A stretch of DNA of 64,000 bases from Candidatus Korarchaeum sp. (GTDB taxonomy: Archaea > Korarchaeota > Korarchaeia > Korarchaeales > Korarchaeaceae): contig JAWAID010000002.1 of NCBI GenBank assembly GCA_038888615.1, forward strand, positions 275,594 through 339,593. Direction: 5' to 3'. Of this stretch, positions 50,120 to 64,000 are shown piece after piece; position 1 is the stretch's first letter, and each line of letters starts with the position of its first letter. The notes under the pieces are model-generated. The model saw only the letters and a program-made list of their open reading frames with translations. It did no database searches and had not been told where the DNA came from. The translations under genes and the position numbers were made by a program.

Positions 50120-50406
50120 CTCCGAATTTAGAGTACACCTGCAGAGGGGTTGGAGAAGCGTATTCCTCCGTGCAGTCCTAGGGATGCCCTGAGTCGCTCG
50201 ACGTCGGGCGGCCCGCCTACGGCCGCTTCAGCTTCGGGCCTCTGAACATCATCTGGAGGATAAGATCGCTACTGATCTCCGGAGATCTCCAGCTAGGCGT
50301 GAGGATAGCCACCCGATGCCCTCAGCGCCCCAGTCAAGGCTTCGAGGTCGCTGAGTGGCGCTGGATCGGAAAACCTTATTCAGGCGAGGCTCGCTCATCC
50401 GAGGGT

Positions 50407-51738
50407 ATGGGTGCGCTCAGGATAAGGTACGATAGAGGTACCTTGATAGTCGAGGGGGTAAGGAGCTTACAGTACTGCACTTGGGACCCGAGGATAGGGG
50501 CCCTGAGGGCCCTAGGCTACAAGTACGCCCAACTGAAGGAGCTCCTGCCCGAGGCAATCGATGAGGCGCTAGACCCCCTGAGGCCCCCCAACCTCAAGGA
50601 GAAGGTATCTCTGAAGCCCTTTCAACATGACGCATTAGAGTCGTGGCTCACCAAGAGGAAAGGGATAATAGTATTGCCTACGGGAGCTGGAAAGACTTAC
50701 GTGGCCCTGAGGGCTATGGAGGTCCTGAACGTCCCCACCCTTGTGGTCGTGCCCACCCTACCCCTCCTGAACCAGTGGAAGGCGCTGATGGAGTCGCTCT
50801 ACGGCGTAGACGTGGGAGTCATAGGGGGAGGTCGGGAGAGCATCGAGCCCATTACAGTCATAACTTACGATTCGGCTTACCTGAGGGCTTCGGAGATAGG
50901 CAATAAGTTCGAGTTCGTGGTCTTCGACGAGGTCCACCACCTGGCTGCGGAGGGCTACATAGAGATAGCCGAGTTCCTGCTGGCCCCCTACAGGATGGGG
51001 TTGACCGCGACCCTGGAGAGGGAGGACGATAGGCACAGGCTCCTCTTCCCCCTAGTGGGTGGTGTCGTCTACAAGCTCCTCCCGAGTGAGCTGGCGGGTG
51101 AGCACCTCTCCGAGTTCGATACCGTGAGGGTGAGGGTCGACATGACGGAGGAGGAGAGGAGGAGGTACGGGGAGCTGATCGAGGAGTATAAAGAATCCTT
51201 GAGGAGAGCGGGCATATCGATAAGATCCCTCGAGGACTTCAGGAAGCTGATAGTCAGAAGCGCTTCAGATAGAGAAGCTAGGAGGGCCTTACTGGCGTGG
51301 CATGAGGCCAGGAAACTCGCTATAAACTCGAGAGCTAAGTTGGAAGTGCTGAAGGACTTACTGGAGAGCCACAGGGAGGATAAGGTGATAATATTCACTG
51401 AGTTCAACGATGTGGCTGAGGAGATAAGCAGGACCTTCCTTATACCGCTGATCACCCACAGGACGAAGCCCAAGGAGAGGGAGAGGATACTCCACGCTTT
51501 CAGGATAGGTGCGGTGAGCAAGGTCGTCACGTCCAAGGTCCTTGATGAGGGGGTAGATGTGCCCGACGCAAGGGTGGGCGTGATACTCGGGGGCAGTGGG
51601 AGCAGGAGGGAATTCGTGCAGAGGTTAGGGAGGATACTGAGGAAAAGGGAGGGAAAGAGAGCTGTCCTCTATGAGATAATATCCAAGGGGACCTCTGAAG
51701 TGAGGATCTCGAGCAGGAGGAGGAGAGGGGTTATCTGA
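50407..51738 (+). CDS. xpb: XPB/Ssl2-family DNA helicase
   Basis: 443 residues from ATG 50407 (MGALRIRYDRGTLIVEG). Motif I LPTGAGKTYVALRA, Ia VVVPTLPLLNQW, II FVVFDEVHHLAA (DEVH box), III GLTATLERED, then IIFTEFNDVAEE (IV), VTSKVLDEGVDVPDA (V) and RREFVQRLGRILRKREG (VI) are complete. An RED-like motif is present as ERED. The frame is open upstream past 50299 but that part looks non-coding. The stop overlaps the Bax1 start (TGATG). It opens DNA in archaeal nucleotide excision repair. Confidence 0.94.
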   Translation: MGALRIRYDRGTLIVEGVRSLQYCTWDPRIGALRALGYKYAQLKELLPEAIDEALDPLRPPNLKEKVSLKPFQHDALESWLTKRKGIIVLPTGAGKTYVALRAMEVLNVPTLVVVPTLPLLNQWKALMESLYGVDVGVIGGGRESIEPITVITYDSAYLRASEIGNKFEFVVFDEVHHLAAEGYIEIAEFLLAPYRMGLTATLEREDDRHRLLFPLVGGVVYKLLPSELAGEHLSEFDTVRVRVDMTEEERRRYGELIEEYKESLRRAGISIRSLEDFRKLIVRSASDREARRALLAWHEARKLAINSRAKLEVLKDLLESHREDKVIIFTEFNDVAEEISRTFLIPLITHRTKPKERERILHAFRIGAVSKVVTSKVLDEGVDVPDARVGVILGGSGSRREFVQRLGRILRKREGKRAVLYEIISKGTSEVRISSRRRRGVI

Positions 51739-53273
51739 TGCTGCCGGTGCAACTTCTCAGGGTCAGGGTGAGGGGATCCAGGGTGTACCCCGTGTGGGCC
51801 AGGGGAACTGACCTGGAACTGGAGGTCGCCGAGCGGTTGATATCGGTTTTTGAGGAGGGGAAAACTCTGAAGCAGGTACATGAGGAGGTGGAGGAGCTTG
51901 AGCAAGTATACGAATCAGCTGGCCTCAGCTTTAAGTTCGTGAGAGGTCTCTCGCTCCTCCTAGAGAGGGAATCACGGTTGGAGAGCCCACCTGTGAGCAT
52001 AGAGCCTTCTAGGGCCAGAGAAGTGGTCTTCAGGATAGTGAACGAGAGGTACGGGGGATTCGTCACGGGTGAGAGGGGAGAGGCCATCAGACTGGCTGCC
52101 CTGGAGCTTGGGGTCGATCCGGGGGAACTGGAGCGTATCCTCTGGGCTGATTCGGAAGAGAACCTCTTTCTCTCGAGAGGACCGAGCTACGATCCCATGA
52201 GCCTGCTAAGGAGGTACAACCTCTCCCTCCTCCAGACGGTCCTGTTCAGGGCCCTCAGGGTCACAGTGAGGACTAGGGCCTCGGGCTCCGAGGTAAAGAG
52301 GTTCCTTAGAGCTGTAAAGAGATTAGGATTGATGTACGTAGCTGAGAAGTCCGATCACGTGGAGCTGAGGGTAGATGGGCCCGCATCTGTTCTCAAGATG
52401 ACGACGAAGTACGGCGTCTCGCTGGCGAAGTCAATTCCTTACGTGATCTCGATGAGCGATTGGCACATCTCAGCTGAGGTGCTGGGGAGGGGCAGGAGGA
52501 AGGACACGCTCCACTTCACCCTCTCCTCATCCTCCAAGGGGCTCTTTCCGGAGGATCGGAGGGAGGAACCGGTTTACGACAGCTCACTGGAGAGGAGCTT
52601 CTCCTCGATAGCCGGTTCAGCCGGATGGATAGTTATAAGGGAACCGGAACCGCTCTTAGCGGGTAACTCCCTGCTCATCCCGGACTTCCTCATCAAGAAG
52701 GGAAGCATTTGGATTTACGTTGAGGTTATGGGTTTCTGGACTCCGGATTACGTGGAGAAGAAGATCAGGAAGATAAGCGAAGTCAAGGAGCCAATTCTCA
52801 TCCTGGTGAGGAGGGATCTGCTCTGCTCCAAGGTAATGAGGCTTCCGAAGGAAGTGATAGCGATAGAGGGGAGCAAGATAGATAAGGTGAGCCTTTTGAG
52901 GGAGCTGGAGAGGATTGAGAGGAAGCTCCTGATGGGAGCCCGTAAGATAGGCGATCAGGAGCTCCTTAGACGAGGTGATATCCTATCTATAGAGGAGCTT
53001 ACAGAGGATCTCGGGTTGACGAGGGAGCAGCTCAGGGAGCTTCTGGACTCCCGTGAGTACGCGCTGCTCGGGGATTACCTCGTTAGGAGGTCCTTACTGG
53101 AGCGATTGAGGGGAGAGAGGTTGCCGAGATCCGTTAGGGAGCTCAAGGAGCTCCTCAGAGAGATCGGATTACCCGAGGAAATAGCTGTTCCTCTCGCCAA
53201 CTACTTGGGATACGAGGTGGTGTGGAGAGGGCTGGATGAGGACGATGCTGAGATCAGGGAGAGTCAAGCATGA
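51738..53273 (+). CDS. bax1: Bax1 nuclease, binding partner of archaeal XPB (DUF790)
   Basis: 511 residues. Bax1/DUF790 proteins pair with archaeal XPB in one operon and have an XPG-like endonuclease activity. Visible here: an N-terminal domain with ELEVAERLISVFEEGKTL, a central segment LRVTVRTRASGSEVKRFLRA, and the nuclease core IPDFLIKKGSIWIYVEVMGF then TPDYVEKKI, a PD-(D/E)XK-like pattern with catalytic D and E. The gene starts within the XPB stop codon, so the two proteins are made together and likely incise damaged DNA. Confidence 0.92.
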   Translation: MLPVQLLRVRVRGSRVYPVWARGTDLELEVAERLISVFEEGKTLKQVHEEVEELEQVYESAGLSFKFVRGLSLLLERESRLESPPVSIEPSRAREVVFRIVNERYGGFVTGERGEAIRLAALELGVDPGELERILWADSEENLFLSRGPSYDPMSLLRRYNLSLLQTVLFRALRVTVRTRASGSEVKRFLRAVKRLGLMYVAEKSDHVELRVDGPASVLKMTTKYGVSLAKSIPYVISMSDWHISAEVLGRGRRKDTLHFTLSSSSKGLFPEDRREEPVYDSSLERSFSSIAGSAGWIVIREPEPLLAGNSLLIPDFLIKKGSIWIYVEVMGFWTPDYVEKKIRKISEVKEPILILVRRDLLCSKVMRLPKEVIAIEGSKIDKVSLLRELERIERKLLMGARKIGDQELLRRGDILSIEELTEDLGLTREQLRELLDSREYALLGDYLVRRSLLERLRGERLPRSVRELKELLREIGLPEEIAVPLANYLGYEVVWRGLDEDDAEIRESQA

Positions 53274-53616: not shown

Positions 53617-54057
53617 ATGGATCGAGAGATCAGCAGCGGCAGGATACCTCTTGACGAACATGAGTATCTCAGGTGGCTGAACTCGGCTAAGAGAACCTTA
53701 GAGTCCGCTTACGGCGATTTAAGTAGGGGAGATTACAACTGGGCTTGTTTTAAGGCTCAGCAAGCGGCTGAATTAGCTGTCAAGGCGTTACTGCGCGGTA
53801 TTGGCTCACCGTCCTACGGTCGAAGTGTAGCGAAGCTACTGATGAGCGTCGAAGCTAAGATCGGGGTGCCCGAGGGGATCATGCAGCGTGCTAAGACCCT
53901 TGACAAGTACTATGTACCCACGAGGTACCCTAACGCCTGGGCGGAGGGTACACCTCATGAGTACTACACGGAGCCTGATGCCACCGACGCCATTAATTGC
54001 GCGAGGGAGGTGATCTCTTGGATCGAGGGAGTATGGGGGTCCTTGAGGAGAGGATAA
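53617..54057 (+). CDS. HEPN domain protein (toxin or RNase-like partner)
   Basis: 146 residues, all-helical. DYNWACFKAQQAAELAVKALLRGIG is the HEPN core, and LDKYYVPTRYPNAWAEGTPHEYY the RYP segment of archaeal HEPN-MNT pairs. EPDATDAINCAREVISWIEG closes the fold. The R-x4-6-H RNase motif is not obvious, as in other HEPN proteins of this clade. Its 3' end overlaps the nucleotidyltransferase gene, giving the classic toxin-antitoxin or abortive-infection layout. Confidence 0.85.
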   Translation: MDREISSGRIPLDEHEYLRWLNSAKRTLESAYGDLSRGDYNWACFKAQQAAELAVKALLRGIGSPSYGRSVAKLLMSVEAKIGVPEGIMQRAKTLDKYYVPTRYPNAWAEGTPHEYYTEPDATDAINCAREVISWIEGVWGSLRRG

Positions 54058-54410
54058 GGGAGGAGGTATTGAGGAAGGCTAAGGAGTGGGCGGATGGCCT
54101 CCCATTCAAAGCCACGGTAATAATAGTGGGCTCGTATGCCAGAGGTGACTTCAACCTGTGGAGCGATGTCGACGTGCTGCTGATATCTGAGTTCGCTGGG
54201 AATCCCATCGAGAGGCTGAGGAGCTTAGATTATCCACCTGGATTCGATGTGATACCACTCACTCCAGATGAGCTCGTCAGACTGACCGACAGGAGGGATC
54301 CGCTGGTTTCAGAGGCGTTAAACGTAGGAGTCTTCCTGAGGGACGATTTAGGCATCAGGGAGAAGTTAAAGGAGATAGATGGCTCTCTAACCTCTCTAGG
54401 TTCTGAGTAG
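54018..54410 (+). CDS. MNT-type nucleotidyltransferase (antitoxin partner)
   Basis: About 130 residues. The polymerase-beta nucleotidyltransferase motif is intact: IIVGSYARGDFNLWSDVDVL, with GS and DxD that bind metal and NTP. MNT antitoxins AMPylate their HEPN partner. TTG 54018 is preferred because GGGAGGTGAT (54005-54014) precedes it at good spacing. TTG 53997 and ATG 54033 are alternatives. Overlaps the HEPN gene by 40 bases. Confidence 0.88.
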   Translation: MDRGSMGVLEERIREEVLRKAKEWADGLPFKATVIIVGSYARGDFNLWSDVDVLLISEFAGNPIERLRSLDYPPGFDVIPLTPDELVRLTDRRDPLVSEALNVGVFLRDDLGIREKLKEIDGSLTSLGSE

Positions 54411-55612: not shown

Positions 55613-55990
55613 TTACCCTCGGCACTGGGAAGCCCTCCTTACCAGTTCAATGAGCTCATTTATTTCCCTCTTCTCCAACTTCCTCAGTTGAAAGTAGAGA
55701 GCACATAGCGTTAAGTAATCCCCACCTATCCCACTCAACATACCTAGGATCCTTGAAGCAGCACACTTCAGGTTCTCTGTAGAGTTGATACGTTTACCCG
55801 AGAGCTTCACTAGGATATCACCAACGATCCTTGAGATGAAAGCCTCTCTCTCCTTGGAGGGATCGAGTCCCTCCCTGAGAGCGTACTCATATCTCCTGAC
55901 CAACCTGAAGGCCAGATCATAGATATCCTTACCCTTCTGGAGGATACCCTCCTCCCTTATAGCACCTGCCAGATCCTCGCAACAGTTCAT
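55613..55990 (-). CDS. small helical type III CRISPR-Cas protein (last gene of operon)
   Basis: 125 residues, all-helical. GILQKGKDIYDLAFRLVRRY and CALYFQLRKLEKREINELIE resemble Csm2/Cmr5-type small subunits (Cas11) that line the target RNA. Its start overlaps the preceding RAMP stop by four bases (ATGA). The N-terminal CC and C-terminal CRG cysteines are unusual. A second small helical protein is encoded at 58352, so the two may be different subunits. The Cas11 role is inferred from size and place. Confidence 0.65.
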   Translation of the reverse strand: MNCCEDLAGAIREEGILQKGKDIYDLAFRLVRRYEYALREGLDPSKEREAFISRIVGDILVKLSGKRINSTENLKCAASRILGMLSGIGGDYLTLCALYFQLRKLEKREINELIELVRRASQCRG

Positions 55991-56736
55991 CCGAACACCT
56001 CCTCGAACCTTTTTCCGAATTGATTTAGAGCTTTCTCGATGCTCTCCGAAATATCTATCTCCCTCTCATTACCGAGGACATCAATTGAATGGATCTTCAC
56101 CTCCTTGACCCTAACCTTTCCGAGTCCCTTGGGTTTCCCGAAGCCGAGAAGGAACACTTTCACGTTGCCTGGGACATAGCCCATAGCTAGCAGGAGCTTC
56201 GCGGTCTCCCCCTCAATGGGGTTGATTATAAGTACTTCTGACCTGAGGGTCGTTCCCTTGGGAATGCACTCTAAGAAGATCCCTCTTCCCATCTCTAGAC
56301 CCATATCGCTCCTGTAAATCTTGATATGTCCAGGTTTAGACATTTTAGGCTTCCAGCTGGGCCCCACCTCTACTATCTCCGGTCCCGCACATTCGACAGG
56401 GAGGGAATCCGAGAACAGAGCCCTGGACATGTAACCTGGGAACCCGAAAAGGTTTGATGTGGACTCTATATCTGCGGTCAACGCCAGGTAGTAGTGGGAG
56501 ACGACCCCCTTCAGAGTGGACCCGGGGATTATGAGCTCTCCTCCCCTCGATCTGGTGTTGAGCATGAGGGGCCCGTCGGAGTGAGGTTGAGCCCTCCCAC
56601 TGCCCACATGAACGGGGGATTCCGTTATGAGGGAAATCCCTATTCTATGGACCTCCCTTATCGAGGAATGCTTCTCATACCTCTGGTTCTTCTGCCTCTT
56701 CGTTTCTCCGACACAAACGAACTTGTATGAGCTCAT
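55987..56736 (-). CDS. Csm3-like Cas7 RAMP protein (third copy)
   Basis: 249 residues. RAMP ferredoxin-like fold with an N-terminal strand ISLITESPVHVGSGRAQPHS then DGPLMLNTR and the Csm3 loop GELIIPGSTLKGVVSHYY. The Asp in PHSDGPLM aligns with the Csm3 target-RNA cleavage residue (D33 in Streptococcus Csm3). The glycine loop near the C-terminus is LLGFGKPKGLGKVRVKEV. It is one base from the preceding RAMP gene. It likely forms part of the crRNA-binding backbone. Confidence 0.82.
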   Translation of the reverse strand: MSSYKFVCVGETKRQKNQRYEKHSSIREVHRIGISLITESPVHVGSGRAQPHSDGPLMLNTRSRGGELIIPGSTLKGVVSHYYLALTADIESTSNLFGFPGYMSRALFSDSLPVECAGPEIVEVGPSWKPKMSKPGHIKIYRSDMGLEMGRGIFLECIPKGTTLRSEVLIINPIEGETAKLLLAMGYVPGNVKVFLLGFGKPKGLGKVRVKEVKIHSIDVLGNEREIDISESIEKALNQFGKRFEEVFG

Positions 56737-56737
56737 C

Positions 56738-57565
56738 TCACCATCCCTCCAGTCCCTTCAGGAGCGGGTCGAGGCATCCCTCCACGGTGGCCCAGGGGAC
56801 CTTGGCTCTCAGGAAGGGAGGCAAGTCCTCATAAACCGAGCATTCAAGATTGTATCCTGAGATAGAATCCCTCAATAGGATCATTTTATCCTTCTTCTCA
56901 GCATCCAGATCTACCTCTTTATTACAATTTGGTAATGCGAGTTTGAAGGATACTTTTTCCATGTGGGAAGGCCATGTTAACATCATCGAGACATCGGAGA
57001 GACTGATAGAGATGCGTCCATAGCCCCTGCTCTTCGACCTCCCCAGCCTAGCTATCCCCGCATCAGCTTGCCTGATCACGGGGGAGAGTAGGGATAGGAA
57101 GGACGGAGGGAGGTTCCTGAATGAGATATCACATGAGAACTTAGCACCGGGCTCAACATACTCTTGAATGAAGGGTCCGTGCTTCACACCCATCGTCTCA
57201 GGGCTCAGCTTCACGTGCTCCCTGATCCCTACTATCGTACAGGGCTCCTCGGCCAACGCGTCATCGAACATGAGCCTAGAGCCGCAGGGTTCCGGTTCAA
57301 TCGTTCCGAAGATATCACTGACGAGCATATCCCACTTATTGAGTTTGAGAGAGGAGAGTGTTCTCTCAACCCAGGCCCTGAAGAACCCCTTGAGCGTGGA
57401 TCCCGGTATTATCGGCATTCCCCTGGAATCCCTAAGCAGGGGTATGTCTGGGGATAAGGGATCCAATGGGCTCCCACCGGATCCAATGGTCAGGGGGGAT
57501 CTCGCCTCTATCTCGCATTTAACAACCCCGGAGATGAATATCGCCTCGAGAACTGGAGCTGTCAT
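56738..57565 (-). CDS. Csm3-like Cas7 RAMP protein (second copy)
   Basis: About 275 residues from ATG 57565, which follows GAGGTGAT at eight-base spacing. The ORF extends to 57586. VKCEIEARSPLTIGSGGSPL then SPDIPLLRD and GMPIIPGSTLKGFFRAWVE is the Csm3 pattern, with the cleavage-type Asp in SPDIP. C-terminal GIARLGRSKSRGYGRISISL is the glycine-rich loop. It overlaps neither neighbour badly and is cotranscribed with the other RAMPs. The presence of three similar Cas7 genes suggests a fixed, asymmetric backbone. Confidence 0.84.
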   Translation of the reverse strand: MTAPVLEAIFISGVVKCEIEARSPLTIGSGGSPLDPLSPDIPLLRDSRGMPIIPGSTLKGFFRAWVERTLSSLKLNKWDMLVSDIFGTIEPEPCGSRLMFDDALAEEPCTIVGIREHVKLSPETMGVKHGPFIQEYVEPGAKFSCDISFRNLPPSFLSLLSPVIRQADAGIARLGRSKSRGYGRISISLSDVSMMLTWPSHMEKVSFKLALPNCNKEVDLDAEKKDKMILLRDSISGYNLECSVYEDLPPFLRAKVPWATVEGCLDPLLKGLEGW

Positions 57566-57575
57566 CAATATCACC

Positions 57576-58331
57576 TCACATGACATCGTTTAAAGTCGCT
57601 TCCCTAACATCCCCTTGAATGAGATCTCCTATCTTAGCCACCCTTATCCCTGATATCCTCACTATTACCCTCCCATAACCCCTACTCTTCCACCCACCTA
57701 TGAACCCCTCTATTCCCCTGCTGAGCAGTTTCAGGAGAAGCTTGAATGTATCATTAGCGCATGAAAACCGGGGGTCGCTCAGCTCATCAAATACCATGGT
57801 GAACTTGTACCTAGTCGGATTCCTGAGGTCCCCGTCCCTCTCCTTCGAAGCTTCCACATCACCGAGCATCCTACTCCTGGCGGCATCCCTCCCACTATCA
57901 ATGGATACGTGCGTCCTTCTGAGCGTCCCCAGGGAGCTATCGAGAGGTTCAGCGTCAGTTAACCTTACGAGAGATGCTAGGGAGAACGCCCTTCCGGAGT
58001 AACCGAACAATCTATCAAGCACGCAGAGCTCATCCAGTTCCTTGAGATCTATTTTGTTCTCGGATATGCTATCAACGCAGGGTTCCAGCTTAAGATTTAT
58101 CCCTTCCAATTCTAATTCCTTCCCTCCTGCGAGCTTATAAGCGAGAAGGAGCCCCGATAGGTACGACCTGAAGAACCCCTTAAGCGTGGATCCCGGTATT
58201 ATCGGAACTCCCCTGAAGTCCTTCAAGACGGGCAGGTCTATGGAGGAAAACGGGTCTCTCCCTGCCCCCACCCTCAGGGGCTCAAGTAATTCGATCTCGC
58301 AATCGACCCAAATTCTCCTCATGAGACTCAT
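57576..58331 (-). CDS. Csm3-like Cas7 RAMP protein (first copy)
   Basis: About 251 residues from ATG 58331, preceded by GGAGG. TTG 58346 (after GAGGTGAT) and GTG 58355 are alternatives. VDCEIELLEPLRVGAGRDPF then SSIDLPVLKD and GVPIIPGSTLKGFFRSYL is closest of the three to Csm3, with the cleavage Asp in SSIDLPV. GFIGGWKSRGYGRVIVRI is the C-terminal glycine loop. It follows the small-subunit gene with a four-base or shorter overlap. Confidence 0.85.
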   Translation of the reverse strand: MSLMRRIWVDCEIELLEPLRVGAGRDPFSSIDLPVLKDFRGVPIIPGSTLKGFFRSYLSGLLLAYKLAGGKELELEGINLKLEPCVDSISENKIDLKELDELCVLDRLFGYSGRAFSLASLVRLTDAEPLDSSLGTLRRTHVSIDSGRDAARSRMLGDVEASKERDGDLRNPTRYKFTMVFDELSDPRFSCANDTFKLLLKLLSRGIEGFIGGWKSRGYGRVIVRISGIRVAKIGDLIQGDVREATLNDVM

Positions 58332-58351
58332 CAAGCCTCCATTCAACTGGA

Positions 58352-58729
58352 TCACCTCACTAAATACTCAAGACCTTCCCTGTAAGCATTGTATAAGTAG
58401 ATACAGCTCGTCAGTATATACTTCGCCAAGATAAGCCTCTCCTCAACGCTCTGAACTTCATTCAGCTTCTCTAGTAGCTCCTTGACGAACTTGAAGAGGT
58501 CGTCATCGGGAGAAGCTTCCCTCGCCACGTAAATCACTTTGAGAGCGAAGAGATCCCAGTTCCTCTTCCTAATACAATCCTCTGCAGCTTTAAGCATGTT
58601 CCTCAGGTTACTCATCGTGATCTCCTTCCCCTCTTTCTCTCTTCCCCCCCGGCGAGGTATCCTTACTTCCCTCATCAGGGATTTAGCTATACTTACCGCA
58701 ACCATCTGGAGCTCCTCATCTGATCTCAT
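58352..58729 (-). CDS. small helical type III Cas11-like subunit (Csm2/Cmr5 type)
   Basis: About 125 residues from ATG 58729 (MRSDEELQMVAV); AGGAGGTG just upstream sets this start, and GTG 58741 is less likely. It is helical throughout: SNLRNMLKAAEDCIRKRNWD, EERLILAKYILTSCIYLYNA. Size and position between the Cas5-like and Cas7 genes match Csm2/Cmr5 small subunits. A basic patch RIPRRGGREKEGK may contact RNA. No signature motif exists for the family, so the assignment is contextual. Confidence 0.68.
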   Translation of the reverse strand: MRSDEELQMVAVSIAKSLMREVRIPRRGGREKEGKEITMSNLRNMLKAAEDCIRKRNWDLFALKVIYVAREASPDDDLFKFVKELLEKLNEVQSVEERLILAKYILTSCIYLYNAYREGLEYLVR

Positions 58730-59774
58730 CCCCAAGACCACCTCCTAGAACGGAGAGAGAATCGAAATGAATGTCATTATCAAAAAACACCATATCTAAA
58801 CCCTGAATCCTCCTAAGATTATCCGGGGGAGGAGTTAGCTCAAGCTCAACGGCCTTCTCGACGTCTGCCCTAGGGTAGACGAGTACGCTCCCGGGTCCCA
58901 TAAGCCTCCTGTATATGTAAAAATTGCCTCGAAACCATGACTTGAAGTTAGATACAATTACCTTCTCATAGATGGGCTCTTTTAATGCCGATAACACGCA
59001 CCTATCCGTGTGAGTCACTACATCAACCGTTAGGAAATCCTCATTGGAGTGCTTACCTATCTTATCCATCCTCCTCTTCCTATACTCCTCGAGGTTCAGC
59101 CATTCCTCCACCTTAACCTCGGAGAGCCCTAGGCCCTTCTTGATGGATGCACCTATCCTCACGGTCAGCTTGTCCCCGAGCGCCTCATGAACGCTCTCAT
59201 TGAGGAAAGCTATTGCGAAGAACCTGGATCCCGGCCTTATGATCTCCTCCGTGAAGAGGAGACCGTACTTCTCCTCTCCCACTTTCTCATAGGCATACGT
59301 CCTTCCCTCGTAATTCAACGCCACGTGCGTGTAAACCTCCTTCTCAGGGGGCCTGAATGCATCCTTCGTGCCCTTGAAGAAGAGGGGCTCTACCTTCCTG
59401 CTCAATGCCTTAACCTCCTTCAGTATGGAGGGACCATCTCTCATCGCTTTAGCAAACATCAGGGCTACTGAAACATACTCACCGCTTTCGCTTCTCGAGA
59501 TAGTAGCCAGGGGGAGGGGAGGGGGCTCTCCAAGCCTGAAAGGAGGAACCTTACCATCCCTGGAGCCCGGGAAAGCGTGGCTCATCCAGATACCTTCAGG
59601 TTTGCTGAGCTTTCCTCTCCTGATTAGATGTGAGAGTATCGCGCCTGAGAGCGTGGATGAAGGTAGGTAGGGAGGGCTGAAGTAATGCGCTCCCTTACAG
59701 TACTTATCCCTTATCACAAGAGGTTCTAGCGTCTCAACGCTCAGCAGAGCGACCCTATCAAAGCTAGATCCCAT
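58716..59774 (-). CDS. Cas5-like RAMP of a type III complex (Csx10/Csm4 type)
   Basis: 352 residues. N-terminal RVALLSVETLEPLVIRDK then AHYFSPPYLPSSTLSGAILS matches the Csx10/Csm4 RAMP start, where YIPGSTLRGA normally sits. KKGLGLSEVKVEEW is the glycine-rich region. It would cap the 5' handle of the crRNA next to Cas10. It overlaps the downstream small-subunit gene by 14 bases and the RAMP upstream by 11. The Csx10 assignment would place the system near III-D, while Csm4 would make it III-A. Confidence 0.72.
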   Translation of the reverse strand: MGSSFDRVALLSVETLEPLVIRDKYCKGAHYFSPPYLPSSTLSGAILSHLIRRGKLSKPEGIWMSHAFPGSRDGKVPPFRLGEPPPLPLATISRSESGEYVSVALMFAKAMRDGPSILKEVKALSRKVEPLFFKGTKDAFRPPEKEVYTHVALNYEGRTYAYEKVGEEKYGLLFTEEIIRPGSRFFAIAFLNESVHEALGDKLTVRIGASIKKGLGLSEVKVEEWLNLEEYRKRRMDKIGKHSNEDFLTVDVVTHTDRCVLSALKEPIYEKVIVSNFKSWFRGNFYIYRRLMGPGSVLVYPRADVEKAVELELTPPPDNLRRIQGLDMVFFDNDIHFDSLSVLGGGLGDEIR

Positions 59775-60360
59775 TGAAGCTCACCTCTTCAACGATGCCG
59801 TAGCCTATGGACGTCCATCCGCATACCCCCCAACCTCTGAGCGCATTCAGGGACTTTCTGAGCAGATCTTCCTCCTCCTCAGCAAGCTCTTCGGCTGAGA
59901 TCTTGAAAGTTACTTCAAATCTAGATGATATCGCTTGAGAGAAGAGTAAAGCTTCCCTCTCTACGGCTCCAAGCCTCCTGTTTATCCTTATCCTGGGCCT
60001 CAGCTCTATCCTTGAGTCGAGATCATCGCCTAAGTCTGAGGAGACTATCTCGAAGCTCAACTTCCCCTCCCTCGATGAGGGAGGAGCCACCTTCCCGGAT
60101 CCCTTGAGGCACCTGCTAGCTACATCGCTACCGAAGAGGCTCTCATAAGCCTCAGCTAGCTTAGGTTCTCTCTTAACCACGAGGCACGCTACCTGCCTTA
60201 GGGCGCCCTTGAACTGAGCGGGCGATATTGGAAACCTCACTACCCTATCCCCTACCTTCTTCTCATAGAGCATCATCCTGTAATCCTCCTTTCTCACTTC
60301 ATAGGATGGCTGGGCCGCCCTTATACCTCTAAACCTAATTCTGACACTGATTTCCCTCAT
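59764..60360 (-). CDS. RAMP superfamily protein, second gene of the Cas10 operon
   Basis: 198 residues. EISVRIRFRGIRAAQPSYEV opens a ferredoxin-like fold, FPISPAQFKGALRQVACLVV is the insertion/loop equivalent to the Csm3 PGSTLKG region, and LRGWGVCGWTSIGYGIVEEV is the C-terminal glycine-rich loop typical of RAMPs. No cleavage Asp is evident. It overlaps Cas10 by 26 bases. It could be the Csm5/Cmr6-like terminal Cas7 at the far end of the backbone or a system-specific subunit. Confidence 0.72.
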   Translation of the reverse strand: MREISVRIRFRGIRAAQPSYEVRKEDYRMMLYEKKVGDRVVRFPISPAQFKGALRQVACLVVKREPKLAEAYESLFGSDVASRCLKGSGKVAPPSSREGKLSFEIVSSDLGDDLDSRIELRPRIRINRRLGAVEREALLFSQAISSRFEVTFKISAEELAEEEEDLLRKSLNALRGWGVCGWTSIGYGIVEEVSFNGI

Positions 60361-62473
60361 ATAGATCCCCCCTTAACTTAGAAAGGTTCTCCCTAACGTC
60401 ACCACCTAGCTCGTTGTTCAATCTATCCTCCAATACGCTTAAGAGTGTGGAAAGTGTGTACAATGCCCTCCATACCTCGGGAGAGGGCCTCCCACCCACC
60501 ACATATCTGTAAACTTCCTTCATACATTCATAGACATTGCTCCTCTCGGAATCCAGCCCCCTTGCTATATCGCTCAACCACCTGAGGAGAGCTAGCTCAT
60601 AGTGCATCCTGCCTCCAGCCTCAGAAAGGAGATCCTCCATCACTTCCTTCAGGTCGGAGGAGGTGATAGCACCTCCATCGCAACCAATTGAGGTATCAAA
60701 CGCCTTGAGGATTGGGGATTCATCAGTTCCAATCCAGATAATGGATCTCCAGAGCCCCTCGATATCAGAGCCTTCCCTAACTCTGAACTTCTCAGGAAGT
60801 CCCCAGGAGGCCTGCTTAGCGTAGAGAATAGAGGCTTGCACGATGGAATCTCTCTGAAGCCCCATCCCTTTTATTACGTCCTTAGTGTACCTCATCATCA
60901 TGTGTGATGTATCATAGAGATATATCGCTGGTACCTTGGTCCTGGCCACTGTCACGCCCAGACTGATTCCTATCCTCCTGTCGCTTGGGATCGCTCCCAG
61001 CTCCCTAGCCCTCGATATAATCTCTTTCACCCTAGCCGCTAAACCCCTCACGAAGCTGACCACGTGCTCGGCCCTCAGTATGAGTAGCATGTCATCACCC
61101 GCAGCATAGAGTGGAGTTATGGGAATTAGGAAGTCGTAGGGCTTCGCTACCTGAGAGGTACGCATACTCGAGATAAGCTCCTCCAATTTCACGGATCTGA
61201 TAGCCCCGCTGATGAGGCCCTCTTCCATTAGGGAGCTGAAGAGAATCGAAAGCGCTATGAAGTCCATTAAAGACTCTGCCTCACTCTTAAGGGATCCAAA
61301 ACCATCTCCATCGGCACTTATCATAGAGATTAAAGCATTAGATTCCGGGTAATCATAGTCCTCCAAGTTCTTTATGAAGCCTGATGCTATATTCCGCCCT
61401 TTCTTTGTTATCTCTTCCCCAATCCTCCTGAATATCCTATAGCTGGATGATTCCTTAATTGCTTGAACGACTTTTCCGTTCCACTCCTTCTCAACATCTC
61501 TCCTTTGAAACTCGCTCTTCAGAATATCCGTTAAAATGAGCCCGTAGGAAGCTAAGATAAGGCAGCTCTGGCATATCCCCTCATCCGTCCTAATGCTACT
61601 CTTTAGCCACCTCACCTTATCCTCACTGGGGGAGAAGGAGTTCAATATGCAATCGACTGAGCTACCATCCAGTATTTTATCAGCTCTGCAGCTTCCGCAT
61701 ATTTTTGAAGGATCCATTTCTATTCTGTCGCTCGGTGACGTTATCTCCTTAGCTGAGGATAGCGCTAGGAGGTAACAGGAACCCAAGTCGCTGAGAAGAT
61801 CCTTAGCCTTTAGGATAGGCACATTCTTCCCATTCCCCTTAAGGATCAGGTCATTGGCTATCGGTATCTCCCGTATATGCCTTAACAATTCCCCCTCCAG
61901 TTCCTCAGCCACCTTAGGTGATGAGATGAAGACCAGCTCCCCCGCATCCCTCGTCAGGATGAACTCCTCACCCAATCTCTCAGCTAGGTAAGTGGAAGCG
62001 TATCTAGGTATTACGTCGACGAGCAAACTTGCCCCCCTCATCTCCCTCAACGCGCCATTCCTTCTCACCAGCTCCTGGATTGAGCCCACTTCGAGTACCT
62101 GTATCGTTATCTCCCAATCCCCCTCTCCCTTCCGAAGCAACTCGTATGAACTTTTGGCCTTATTGTAAAATTTTGGATTTTTATTAATATTTTCAGCAAT
62201 TTTATTGAATTTTTCTTCCTCAACTACGACCTTCAGTGAGGAGACCCTGACATCCCTCCACTCACAGCTCCTGGGATCCGAGACGGAAAGGGCAATCAGA
62301 GGAGGGAAGGTCCTTAACCTCAGGAGGCTCTCGAAGGTATCTCTATCTCCACCTCCTCCGATTAGCTGTTCTCTCAGTAAGTCGTTCAAGCGTTTGTAGA
62401 AACGATTGAGATCGGGCCTATCGGACTCCTCCCCAAGTGCCGAGAGGAGAACTCCCTCGAGGTCCTTCCTCAA
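60335..62473 (-). CDS. cas10: Cas10, large subunit of a type III CRISPR complex
   Basis: 712 residues. The first Palm-like domain contains RRNGALREMRGASLLVDVIP, typical of Cas10. A zinc ribbon (CGSCRADKI and ICQSC, about 258-306) follows. The second Palm has SMISADGDGFGSLKSEAESL and the nucleotide-cyclase motif AGDD (458-461) in LYAAGDDMLLIL, a GGDD variant expected to support cyclic oligoadenylate synthesis. No HD motif is visible in the first 130 residues, so DNase activity may be lost. Start TTG 62473, with a CTTTTTAAATAG box about 30 bases upstream. It leads an eight-gene overlapping operon. Confidence 0.9.
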   Translation of the reverse strand: MRKDLEGVLLSALGEESDRPDLNRFYKRLNDLLREQLIGGGGDRDTFESLLRLRTFPPLIALSVSDPRSCEWRDVRVSSLKVVVEEEKFNKIAENINKNPKFYNKAKSSYELLRKGEGDWEITIQVLEVGSIQELVRRNGALREMRGASLLVDVIPRYASTYLAERLGEEFILTRDAGELVFISSPKVAEELEGELLRHIREIPIANDLILKGNGKNVPILKAKDLLSDLGSCYLLALSSAKEITSPSDRIEMDPSKICGSCRADKILDGSSVDCILNSFSPSEDKVRWLKSSIRTDEGICQSCLILASYGLILTDILKSEFQRRDVEKEWNGKVVQAIKESSSYRIFRRIGEEITKKGRNIASGFIKNLEDYDYPESNALISMISADGDGFGSLKSEAESLMDFIALSILFSSLMEEGLISGAIRSVKLEELISSMRTSQVAKPYDFLIPITPLYAAGDDMLLILRAEHVVSFVRGLAARVKEIISRARELGAIPSDRRIGISLGVTVARTKVPAIYLYDTSHMMMRYTKDVIKGMGLQRDSIVQASILYAKQASWGLPEKFRVREGSDIEGLWRSIIWIGTDESPILKAFDTSIGCDGGAITSSDLKEVMEDLLSEAGGRMHYELALLRWLSDIARGLDSERSNVYECMKEVYRYVVGGRPSPEVWRALYTLSTLLSVLEDRLNNELGGDVRENLSKLRGDLYEGNQCQN

Positions 62474-62642: not shown

Positions 62643-63185
62643 ATGCCATCCGTTGGTGAATTGTGGAAAGAAGTCTTCTGCTCGTATACAAAGGACCTCT
62701 CGAGGATAAGGGAGTGGGCTGATTCCGTTTTCAAGAGTCCAGATGAGTCACTCGAGATCGCAAGGAAACTCACTAGGGCCTACGGTAGGTTCCCTGATGC
62801 CATAACCTTGGGATTCAGTCCCCAGGTCCTAGTCGGAGCTCTGGCCTTAAGGGACAATATCATAGCTGTGACGAGCCCCGAGGTCTGGAGGGGCGAGGGC
62901 CAGGGGGCCCTGTCCAAGGCCCTCCTCGACGCCTTCTCCGATAGGGTGAGGGTGGAGTTAGCACCCTTCGCCCCCTCGTCCGCCACCCCTCCGGACGAGG
63001 TAATAAGGGGGTTGAGAGAGGTCTTCGGAAAGCTAAAAGAGGAGGGGGTTAAGCTTCTCGATATATCAGGAGGGACCCAACTCGTCCCCATAGCGGCCAT
63101 CCTAGCTGGATTCAGGTCCTTCTCATACGCTTACCCGGATGGGAATTTCCTCTCTTTCTACGAATTCGAGATCGGGGGACCTTAG
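62643..63185 (+). CDS. stand-alone CARF-domain protein beside type III CRISPR-Cas
   Basis: 180 residues. After an N-terminal helical stretch (1-45), the fold reads as a CARF domain: strand AITLGFSPQ (about 54), NIIAVTSPEVWRGEG, VRVELAPFAPSSATP, and LLDISGGTQLVPIAAILAGF, with D140 and the SGGT loop matching the ligand-binding motif of CARF proteins. There is no HEPN, nuclease or DNA-binding domain in this chain, so it is either a cyclic-oligoadenylate ring nuclease (Crn1-like size) or a sensor acting through the next gene. Divergent from cas10, and the next gene starts one base after its stop. Confidence 0.8.
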   Translation: MPSVGELWKEVFCSYTKDLSRIREWADSVFKSPDESLEIARKLTRAYGRFPDAITLGFSPQVLVGALALRDNIIAVTSPEVWRGEGQGALSKALLDAFSDRVRVELAPFAPSSATPPDEVIRGLREVFGKLKEEGVKLLDISGGTQLVPIAAILAGFRSFSYAYPDGNFLSFYEFEIGGP

Positions 63186-63186
63186 G

Positions 63187-64000
63187 ATGGAGAGCTCGAG
63201 GAAGGTCTTTAAGTCAGTGAGCCTCTTCGATCCCGATATAGCTTACGCTCTATCTGATGCCATGGCTGAGTATGATTACCTCGTAGCGGATCGTGAGGAG
63301 AGCTTTCTGGTAGAGGATGTGAGCAGTGCAGATGAGTGGAAGAAGTGGCTGAGGAACATCTTCCTCAGCATATCCCTTCCTCAGATGCTTTTCTCAGCAG
63401 AGGAGGGAGTGAAGGGAGAGTTGAGGAAGCACATAAGGCCTTTAGAGAGGGAACTTCCAAATGAGAGCAAGCCTCATGATGAATGCGAAACTCTCTATAA
63501 GTTATGCCCGGAGTTCATGAATATGTGGTTCTTCTCAAACATGATTCTCTCCCCTAAGTTCTCCAAGGAGTATCTGAAAGAGCTGGAGGAGTCGCTATGT
63601 CACACCGAGGAACTCTCAAATATTTTAAATAAAAGGAGAGAAAAGATAAAAAATTTGATAGAAAATTCAGATAACTTTTTGATACTTCCCCAATTCGGTG
63701 TGGGAACCCATAGGATCTCTCAGATCGCGAAGTTCGTGAAAAACATCGTAAATTATAGGAAAAAAGATGTGAAAATCCTCCTAGGACTGAACAAACAGTT
63801 GATGGCTAGGCATGGGTGTGAGATAGGAGAGCTCAGGGAGGAACTGAAGAAGCTCGAGGTGAATGTGGAGGATGTTATGTTAGACCCAGATGATGAGAAG
63901 AATGTTGATGAGAAATTGAGATCCGGGAGTACTGTTGCGTTCCTTCTCCAGGATTACTCGAAGGAATTGGTTAAGAAATTGATAGAAATGGGCCTCGCAA
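63187..64000 (+). CDS. unknown protein cotranscribed with the CARF gene (incomplete at 3' end)
   Basis: ATG 63187 opens a frame of at least 271 codons that is still open at the window edge. The gene starts one base after the CARF stop, so the two are translationally linked. Visible parts: an acidic, helical N-terminal half (LFDPDIAYALSDAMAEYDYL, CPEFMNMWFFSNMILSP), a basic central segment (NILNKRREKIKNLIE), then FLILPQFGVGTHRISQIAKF, an alpha/beta stretch KKDVKILLGLNKQLMARHG and an acidic loop DPDDEKNVDE. No membrane segment. I do not recognise the family. It is the likeliest effector or partner of the CARF sensor. Confidence 0.75.
   Translation, partial: MESSRKVFKSVSLFDPDIAYALSDAMAEYDYLVADREESFLVEDVSSADEWKKWLRNIFLSISLPQMLFSAEEGVKGELRKHIRPLERELPNESKPHDECETLYKLCPEFMNMWFFSNMILSPKFSKEYLKELEESLCHTEELSNILNKRREKIKNLIENSDNFLILPQFGVGTHRISQIAKFVKNIVNYRKKDVKILLGLNKQLMARHGCEIGELREELKKLEVNVEDVMLDPDDEKNVDEKLRSGSTVAFLLQDYSKELVKKLIEMGLA

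What the first reader, a model, noticed from the sequence alone, without database searches (positions are those of the whole stretch)
55613..62473. Compact type III operon with three Csm3-like Cas7 genes, each keeping a cleavage-type Asp
Seen: eight genes with overlaps or gaps of a few bases; three tandem Cas7 proteins carry PGSTLKG plus an Asp equivalent to Csm3 D33 (SSIDLPV, SPDIPLL, HSDGPLM). Two small helical proteins and a fourth, divergent RAMP are also present. Established: classic Csm complexes use one Csm3 gene in multiple copies. Three distinct paralogues imply a fixed-order backbone, as in III-D-like and fused III-E systems. The subtype could be new or an archaeal III-D variant.
Basis: partly seen in the sequence, partly recalled or inferred. 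Interest (0 to 1): 0.62.

Follow-up and report, generated by a model that had tools for sequence, protein, structure and literature searches.

The report
Divergent archaeal type III-D CRISPR operon
An archaeal RNA-guided antiviral complex that, instead of stacking one backbone protein many times, uses four different backbone proteins in a set order; this is a known design (CRISPR subtype III-D) in an unusually divergent form that lacks one usual subunit.

Summary
The eight-gene operon is real and intact. It encodes five RAMP proteins, not four: R198 (Cas7.1-like), R352 (Cas5-like) and three Cas7s (c7a, c7b, c7c), plus Cas10 and two small helical proteins. Its gene order, cas10–cas7.1–cas5–cas11–cas7.2–cas7.3–cas7.4–small protein, is that of csx19-bearing III-D operons found here in Chloroflexota and other archaea, except that csx19 is missing. 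Profile–profile comparison maps the large subunits one-to-one onto those genes; c7b ties between Cas7.2 and Cas7.3. Several-Cas7 III-D complexes are known and one is solved in an archaeon (SsoCsm), so the architecture is not new. Conserved catalytic-type Asp is supported for c7a and c7b; that of c7c sits at a position not conserved in its family, and that of R198 could not be aligned. Cas10 has no HD motif and carries AGDD, a variant reported in active loci. No subunit reaches an NCBIfam cut-off, and Cas10 forms a deep lineage, weakly sister to csx19-bearing III-D, found in 3 of 394 genomes searched (its own included). Most likely a divergent, Csx19-less III-D effector that cuts target RNA and signals through cyclic oligoadenylate, using a neighbouring array whose repeat is shared with the genome's III-B locus. 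A new variant of a known kind.

The parts
60335..62473 (-). cas10 (712 aa, TTG start): no HD motif in the first 250 aa; ADGDGFG and AGDD palm motifs
   Evidence: Pfam Cas10-Cmr2_palm2 1.6e-6; PADLOC Cas10 9.2e-18; motifs
61091..61102 (-). AGDD cyclase motif of Cas10 (residues 458-461)
   Evidence: the G011 ortholog also has AGDD
59764..60360 (-). R198: Cas7.1-like RAMP (198 aa)
   Evidence: Pfam RAMPs 3.6e-10; hhalign best to III-D Cas7.1, P 92
58716..59774 (-). R352: Cas5-like RAMP (352 aa), divergent relative of Csx10
   Evidence: PADLOC Cas5_IIId 1.7e-5, second to a Csm3 model at 6.4e-7; hhalign P 95 to III-D cas5; best solved relative SsoCsm Cas5, E 0.012
58352..58741 (-). sm129: helical protein in the cas11 position (probable small subunit)
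   Evidence: position; score to III-D cas11 profile reached by 6 of 500 shuffles; no PADLOC match; fold search inconclusive
57576..58355 (-). c7a: Cas7.2-like, 259 aa
   Evidence: hhalign score 142.5 to Cas7.2, at most 78.2 to the other Cas7 sets; solved relative 8bmw_H 7.3e-12
58236..58238 (-). c7a D40, catalytic-type Asp
   Evidence: Asp in 35 of 37 Cas7.2 rows
56738..57586 (-). c7b: Cas7.3-like, 282 aa
   Evidence: the only strong match to the Cas7.3 profile (92 bits; c7a 34), but also 94 bits to the Cas7.2 profile; hhalign ties 7.3 with 7.2
57446..57448 (-). c7b D47, catalytic-type Asp
   Evidence: Asp in 33 of 37 Cas7.3 rows
55987..56736 (-). c7c: Cas7.4-like terminal Cas7, 249 aa
   Evidence: hhalign best to Cas7.4, 113 against 85; best solved match lies in the C-terminal part of 8d9f, Cas7-11 by recall; tree 77/71 with Cas7.4
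56575..56577 (-). c7c D54, Asp of uncertain role
   Evidence: column is Asp in 4 of 28 Cas7.4 rows
55613..55990 (-). sm125: small helical protein after the last Cas7, the position of csx21 in other III-D operons
   Evidence: model pLDDT 61.6; no significant match in Pfam, NCBIfam, PADLOC or PDB sequences or to the III-D sets built here
62643..63185 (+). CARF180: weak CARF-like gene, divergent from cas10 (associated, not part of the complex)
   Evidence: PADLOC CARF3 0.0018; no Pfam match
63139..64000 (+). start of a 345-aa gene of unknown function (continues past the window, L063:733-1770)

Best explanation
A CRISPR effector of the III-D kind, in a divergent lineage without Csx19. [quoted passage not shown] R198, c7a and c7b, capped by c7c, form the backbone in gene order along the guide; sm129 (Cas11) and perhaps sm125 line the second filament. 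When a complementary viral transcript binds, c7a and c7b (perhaps R198) cut it at 6-nt steps through the metal-binding Asp, while Cas10, having no HD nuclease, makes cyclic oligoadenylate through its AGDD palm, which activates a CARF effector. crRNA comes from the array about 5 kb from cas10, whose repeat matches that of the III-B locus, and is processed by that locus's Cas6. Shown: genes, order, motifs, shared repeat. Inferred from III-Dv and SsoCsm: assembly, cleavage, signalling, crRNA supply.
For: One-to-one profile matches: cas10 P 97, R198 to Cas7.1 P 92, R352 to cas5 P 95, c7a to Cas7.2, c7b to Cas7.3 (tied with 7.2), c7c to Cas7.4. Solved relatives: a III-D Cas7 of SsoCsm for c7a and c7b, its Cas5 for R352. 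Asp columns. [quoted passage not shown] In G026 a relative of this Cas10 starts beside a CARF5 gene and a CARF–HEPN Csx1. Identical 24-nt repeat at the adjacent array (27 repeats) and the III-B/cas1/cas6 array (23).
Against: No subunit reaches an NCBIfam cut-off (Csx10 18.4 of 177.3 bits; Csx7 at most 73.8 of 108), and the Csx10 search of 394 genomes did not list the window's genome among its 13 matches. R352's best PADLOC model is a Csm3, not Cas5_IIId. The III-D cas5 profile scores the genome's III-B Cmr3 higher than R352 (23.4 against 12.5 bits; 25.6 against 19.1 with archaeal rows added). The Cas7.1 profile scores c7a and c7b above R198, and the Cas7.2 profile scores c7b slightly above c7a. 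No csx19. The Cas10 tree gives only 70/75 for a place beside III-D1; grouping with III-B (p 0.285), Sso-type (0.233) or III-A (0.076) is not rejected. In the Cas7 tree c7a and c7b fall outside the III-D1 clades, though forced orthology is not rejected. Both small proteins lack a significant match.
Confidence: 0.82

Rival explanations
1. A separate type III lineage, deserving its own subtype, that arrived at the same gene order or split off before III-D, III-A and III-B diversified.
For: Cas10 pair on a long own branch (2.62 changes per column) outside all starred clades of the other groups; no csx19, no HD motif; nothing above NCBIfam cut-offs; found in 3 of 394 genomes, its own included.
Against: Gene order and one-to-one matches to III-D; best tree puts it beside III-D1 (70/75) and within III-D as a whole (84/89).
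Confidence: 0.12
2. A III-A-like Csm operon whose csm3 was multiplied in this lineage; the likeness to III-D is only positional.
For: c7a and c7b as sisters not rejected (p 0.302); in the first tree both lie nearest to archaeal Csm3 by path; nearly identical codons in one 13-codon tract (12 of 13 against 24 of 60 elsewhere); Csm3 models are the best PADLOC match of all five RAMPs.
Against: c7c groups with Cas7.4 and matches the C-terminal part of Cas7-11; R198 precedes the Cas5 as in III-D; no Csm4 or Csm5 model matched R352; several of those Csm3 models are labelled III-A and III-D together. The codon tract looks like gene conversion, since 37% protein identity speaks against a recent full duplication.
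Confidence: 0.06
3. A decayed operon without function.
For: Patchy occurrence and divergence.
Against: Eight intact, overlapping ORFs; palm and Cas7 Asps kept; an array alongside; palm motifs kept in an ortholog at 37% identity.
Confidence: 0.02

Closest known systems
csx19-bearing III-D operons of the Chloroflexota type (here called III-D1)
   Same: Order cas10–cas7.1–cas5–cas11–cas7.2–cas7.3–cas7.4–small protein; Cas10 mostly without an HD-nuclease motif (L085 has HDLGK)
   Different: No csx19; c7c 249 aa against about 320; AGDD instead of GGDD; no cas6 beside it; small last protein not recognisable as Csx21; own Cas10 branch
SsoCsm, the solved archaeal III-D complex (PDB 8BMW)
   Same: Several distinct Cas7 genes and a III-D Cas5; c7a and c7b hit its Cas7 chain H best; the Sso-type loci L078, L080, L082 have no significant csx19 match either
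   Different: Gene order cas11–7c–7d–7e–cas10–7a–cas5–7b and HDVGKP in the three Sso-type Cas10s scanned; the window has no Cas7b equivalent
Synechocystis III-Dv
   Same: Collinear: Cas7-Cas5-Cas11, Cas7-2x and Cas7-insertion match R198-R352-sm129, c7a-c7b and c7c
   Different: III-Dv is fused, has Csx19 (needed for assembly there) and an insertion in its last Cas7 (PMC11026444, parts 1-3 of 9 read)
III-E Cas7-11
   Same: c7c resembles its C-terminal part (protein named from recall)
   Different: One fused protein without Cas10 or Cas5 (PMC11026444)

Membership tests
Subtype III-D | Several distinct Cas7 paralogues plus Cas5, Cas10 and a small subunit in one operon | tested here: met
   Five RAMPs and Cas10; own-genome RAMP search shows 5 genes here and 3 at the III-B locus; small subunit by position only
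Subtype III-D | Signature Cas5 of the Csx10 family | tested here: inconclusive
   TIGR02674 18.4 of 177.3 bits, not found at E 1e-4 by genome search; Cas5_IIId 1.7e-5 behind a Csm3 model; 8bmw Cas5 E 0.012; hhalign P 95. Comparators: L085 cas5 277.5 bits, L031 cas5 173
Subtype III-D | Cas10 in the III-D clade | tested here: inconclusive
   Beside III-D1 70/75, within III-D1 plus Sso-type and Methanohalophilus 84/89; rival placements not rejected
III-D1 (csx19-bearing) | Gene order cas10–7.1–5–11–7.2–7.3–7.4 | tested here: met
   the cas11 place by position only
III-D1 (csx19-bearing) | csx19 between cas7.3 and cas7.4 | tested here: not met
   One base separates c7b and c7c; no csx19 match in window ORFs of 60 aa or more from 50001 on at E 5
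III-A | Csm4/Csm5 and one csm3 | tested here: not met
   Three Csm3-like genes; no Csm4 or Csm5 model for R352
III-B | Cmr1, Cmr3, Cmr4, Cmr6 profiles | tested here: not met
   No Cmr model above its NCBIfam cut-off; a separate III-B locus exists
III-E / III-I | Fused Cas7-11 protein | tested here: not met
   Separate genes
III-G / III-H | Inactivated Cas10 palm, no conserved Cas7 catalytic Asp (PMC12669027, passages) | tested here: not met
   Both palm Asps kept; c7a and c7b Asps

The most novel reading that the evidence does not exclude
A deep, unnamed lineage of type III found so far only in one small archaeal phylum: an unfused, Csx19-free, HD-free effector with four single-domain Cas7 genes in the same domain order as III-Dv. 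If it branches at the base of III-D, it would show that the ordered several-Cas7 backbone came before Csx19 and before the insertion in the last Cas7.
Probability: 0.2. Interest if true: 0.45.

Novelty: new variant of a known kind. Interest (0 to 1): 0.3.

Why it matters
III-D is regarded as the source of the single-protein effector Cas7-11 (PMC11026444, PMC12669027). An unfused, collinear relative without Csx19, which III-Dv needs for assembly, makes it testable what holds an ordered several-Cas7 complex together. It is also a case in which curated subunit profiles fall short of a III-D operon. As a discovery it is moderate: the architecture is known.

Tried and rejected
A new architecture was considered and rejected: several-Cas7 III-D operons and a solved archaeal complex exist. 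Cas11 identity of the small proteins by fold: Foldseek gave no match at E 0.001 or better for either (Cmr5 2zop only at rank 49 for sm129); second looks gave Z up to 8.4 (sm129, vinculin tail) and 6.6 (sm125), which for helical bundles means nothing. sm125 against the profile of the protein that follows Cas7.4 in other III-D operons (Csx21 in the two sampled): no signal, 95 of 500 shuffles score as high; against cas11, 41 of 500. Relatives of c7b in viral contigs: none confirmed. Cas10 in plasmids and the array in phages: no match. PDB profile search with the Cas10 pair: nothing at E 0.1. The rest of the operon in G011 and G026: not found; contigs end. A place of c7a with Cas7.3 or c7c with Cas7.2 was not tested to the end. 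The first Cas10 tree, with one III-B row, put the pair beside III-B at 69/7; with 11 III-B rows that went away. Literature searches were made; those for 'Korarchaeota' or 'Korarchaeum' with CRISPR and III-D or type III listed one paper each, titled on other subjects and not opened. I did not establish that this operon is undescribed.

Rows dropped before counts: L011 and L016 were left out by hand; L018 (cas7.2, 7.3, 7.4, csx19, post), L054 (cas7.4), L025 (csx19), L015 and L044 (cas5), and L024, L028, L046, L049, L051 (post). Trees used subsets: 14 loci plus five archaeal Csm3 rows, 10 loci plus two Sso-type, 29 and 32 Cas10 rows. The III-D sets were assigned by position; of ten of their proteins checked against NCBIfam and PADLOC, one putative csx19 (L015) had no match. 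In one search the csx19, cas11 and post profiles contain L083, L085 or L086 rows, which match by construction; the independent csx19 matches to those loci are.
Full report
Observation. Eight ORFs run from 62473 down to 55613 on the minus strand, each overlapping the next by 4 to 26 bases or, once, separated by 1 base. In order: Cas10 (712 aa), R198, R352, sm129, c7a (259), c7b (282), c7c (249), sm125. Pfam finds the RAMP superfamily in five of them and the Cas10 palm in the first. A search of the whole genome for RAMPs finds eight genes: these five and three at a III-B locus.

Relatives. A scan of the genome-contig collection with the three Cas7s gave 49 loci, 28 of them Chloroflexota by my reading of the record titles. 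In 38 loci an adjacent Cas7 pair like c7a–c7b was assigned (by script and position, contigs often cut, one of the 38, L018, misassigned and later dropped). Fuller examples read cas10–Cas7 (about 225 aa)–cas5 (about 390)–cas11 (about 160)–Cas7 (about 283)–Cas7 (about 340)–csx19–Cas7 (about 320)–small protein. Sampled members carry recognised models: Csx10 for both cas5 tested (277.5 and 173 bits, cut-off 177.3), Csm2 for both cas11, Csx19 for two of three, and Csx21, a III-D-associated family, for both last proteins. A Csx10 search in 394 related genomes found 13 with a match at E 1e-4, 2 over the cut-off; the window's own genome was not among them. Of nine of these loci fetched, L083, L085 and L086 show the same order with csx19 (L086 cut in cas10), L084 shows its front part, L078, L080, L082 and, cut, L079 show the SsoCsm order cas11–7c–7d–7e–cas10–7a–cas5–7b, and L081 fits neither. 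The window has the first order without csx19.

One-to-one matches. Profiles built from the genome-contig loci were compared with the window proteins by hhalign: cas10 to cas10 (P 97), R198 to Cas7.1 (92, next 78), R352 to cas5 (95, next 46), c7a to Cas7.2 (score 142.5, next 78.2), c7b to Cas7.3 (144.0) and Cas7.2 (142.7), a tie, c7c to Cas7.4 (113, next 85). hmmsearch separates the tie in part: the Cas7.3 profile gives c7b 92 bits and c7a 34. Against this, the Cas7.2 profile scores c7b (94) slightly above c7a (89), the Cas7.1 profile scores c7a and c7b higher than R198, and the cas5 profile scores the Cmr3 of the III-B locus higher than R352. Small proteins: sm129 scores 4.3 bits to cas11, equalled by 6 of 500 shuffles; sm125 shows nothing. 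Solved structures: c7a and c7b hit a III-D Cas7 of SsoCsm best, R352 the III-D Cas5 (E 0.012), c7c the C-terminal part of a RAMP superfamily protein that I take from recall to be Cas7-11, R198 a Cas7 of a complex I recognise from recall as type VII (E 0.024); the Cas10 pair found none at E 0.1.

Trees. In the Cas7 trees the III-D1 Cas7.1, 7.2, 7.3 and 7.4 sets each form one group, the first weakly. c7c falls with Cas7.4 (77/71). c7a with 7.2 (p 0.274), c7b with 7.3 (p 0.114) and c7a with c7b (p 0.302) are all not rejected: descent of c7a and c7b is open. In the Cas10 tree of 32 rows the window and its G011 ortholog form a long own branch, beside III-D1 with 70/75 and within III-D1 plus Sso-type with 84/89; placement with Sso-type (p 0.233), III-B (0.285) or III-A (0.076) is not rejected. 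The 2025 classification describes type III subtypes as having a specific core gene set and a distinct Cas10 clade (PMC12669027, passages); with two usable Cas10s that is not shown here.

Active sites. c7a D40 and c7b D47 align with Asp in 35 of 37 and 33 of 37 relatives; c7c D54 with Asp in 4 of 28; R198 D26 fell opposite gaps in 22 of 22, although G011 has an Asp at the same place. In III-Dv the cutting Asps lie in the first three Cas7 domains and not in Cas7-insertion (PMC11026444, part 3), and in SsoCsm one Cas7 with a plausible Asp does not cut (PMC9945777, part 3), so an Asp alone does not prove cleavage. Cas10 has AGDD in window and G011, GGDD in 25 of the 26 other full or partial Cas10s scanned (L025 showed none); the window Cas10 has no HD in its first 250 residues. 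AGDD occurs in loci with known effectors, and HD domains are least common in III-D (3%) (PMC11229360, passages).

Surroundings. Divergent from cas10 lie a weak CARF gene and two genes of unknown function, then an array of 27 repeats that starts at G000:C2:343030, about 5 kb from cas10. Its 24-nt repeat is identical to that of the 23-repeat array by the III-B, cas1 and Cas6 (PF10040) locus; a third array with 113 repeats has another repeat. In G026 the same kind of Cas10, cut by the contig end, lies beside a CARF5 gene and a CARF–HEPN Csx1. This Cas10 occurs in 3 of 29 genomes of the phylum, its own included, and in the same 3 of 394 relatives. The host is an archaeon by inference; from recall of phylum and genome size I suspect Korarchaeota, which no call tested.

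Verdict. III-D in architecture and most likely in working, as a divergent, perhaps early-branching variant without Csx19 or a Cas7b. What it works like is well supported; strict III-D1 membership fails on csx19, and the Csx10 signature is far below its cut-off.

Noticed in passing
57377-57454 and 58167-58244: c7a and c7b share a nearly identical DNA tract over PIIPGSTLKGFFR: 12 of 13 same codons against 24 of 60 at identical residues elsewhere (Fisher p 0.0006), which suggests gene conversion between neighbouring Cas7 genes.
   Followed up: partly
63139-64000 and L063:733-2891: Two overlapping genes (345 and 385 aa) between the CARF gene and the array, with no Pfam match over its cut-off and no significant PADLOC match; the 385-aa protein was found in 1 of 29 genomes of the phylum (its own). 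Possible unknown effectors of the signalling arm.
   Followed up: partly
53617-54410: HEPN domain gene followed by a nucleotidyltransferase gene, a likely HEPN/MNT toxin-antitoxin pair.
   Followed up: no
50299-53273: XPB-like helicase followed by a DUF790 gene, the archaeal XPB-Bax1 pair by recall.
   Followed up: no
L005:3437-5104 and L003:11656-13060: Arrays by the III-D and III-B operons use the same 24-nt repeat, so both effectors may share crRNAs.
   Followed up: partly
L082:167-8928: A species of the same genus (G021) carries an SsoCsm-type III-D operon with an HD-bearing Cas10, so two III-D arrangements occur in one genus.
   Followed up: no
L031:13211-13897, L058:11965-12720: The protein after the last Cas7 in these III-D operons is Csx21 by PADLOC; shorter proteins stand in the same place in L025, L015, L085 and the window (sm125), without a tested link to Csx21.
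   Followed up: partly
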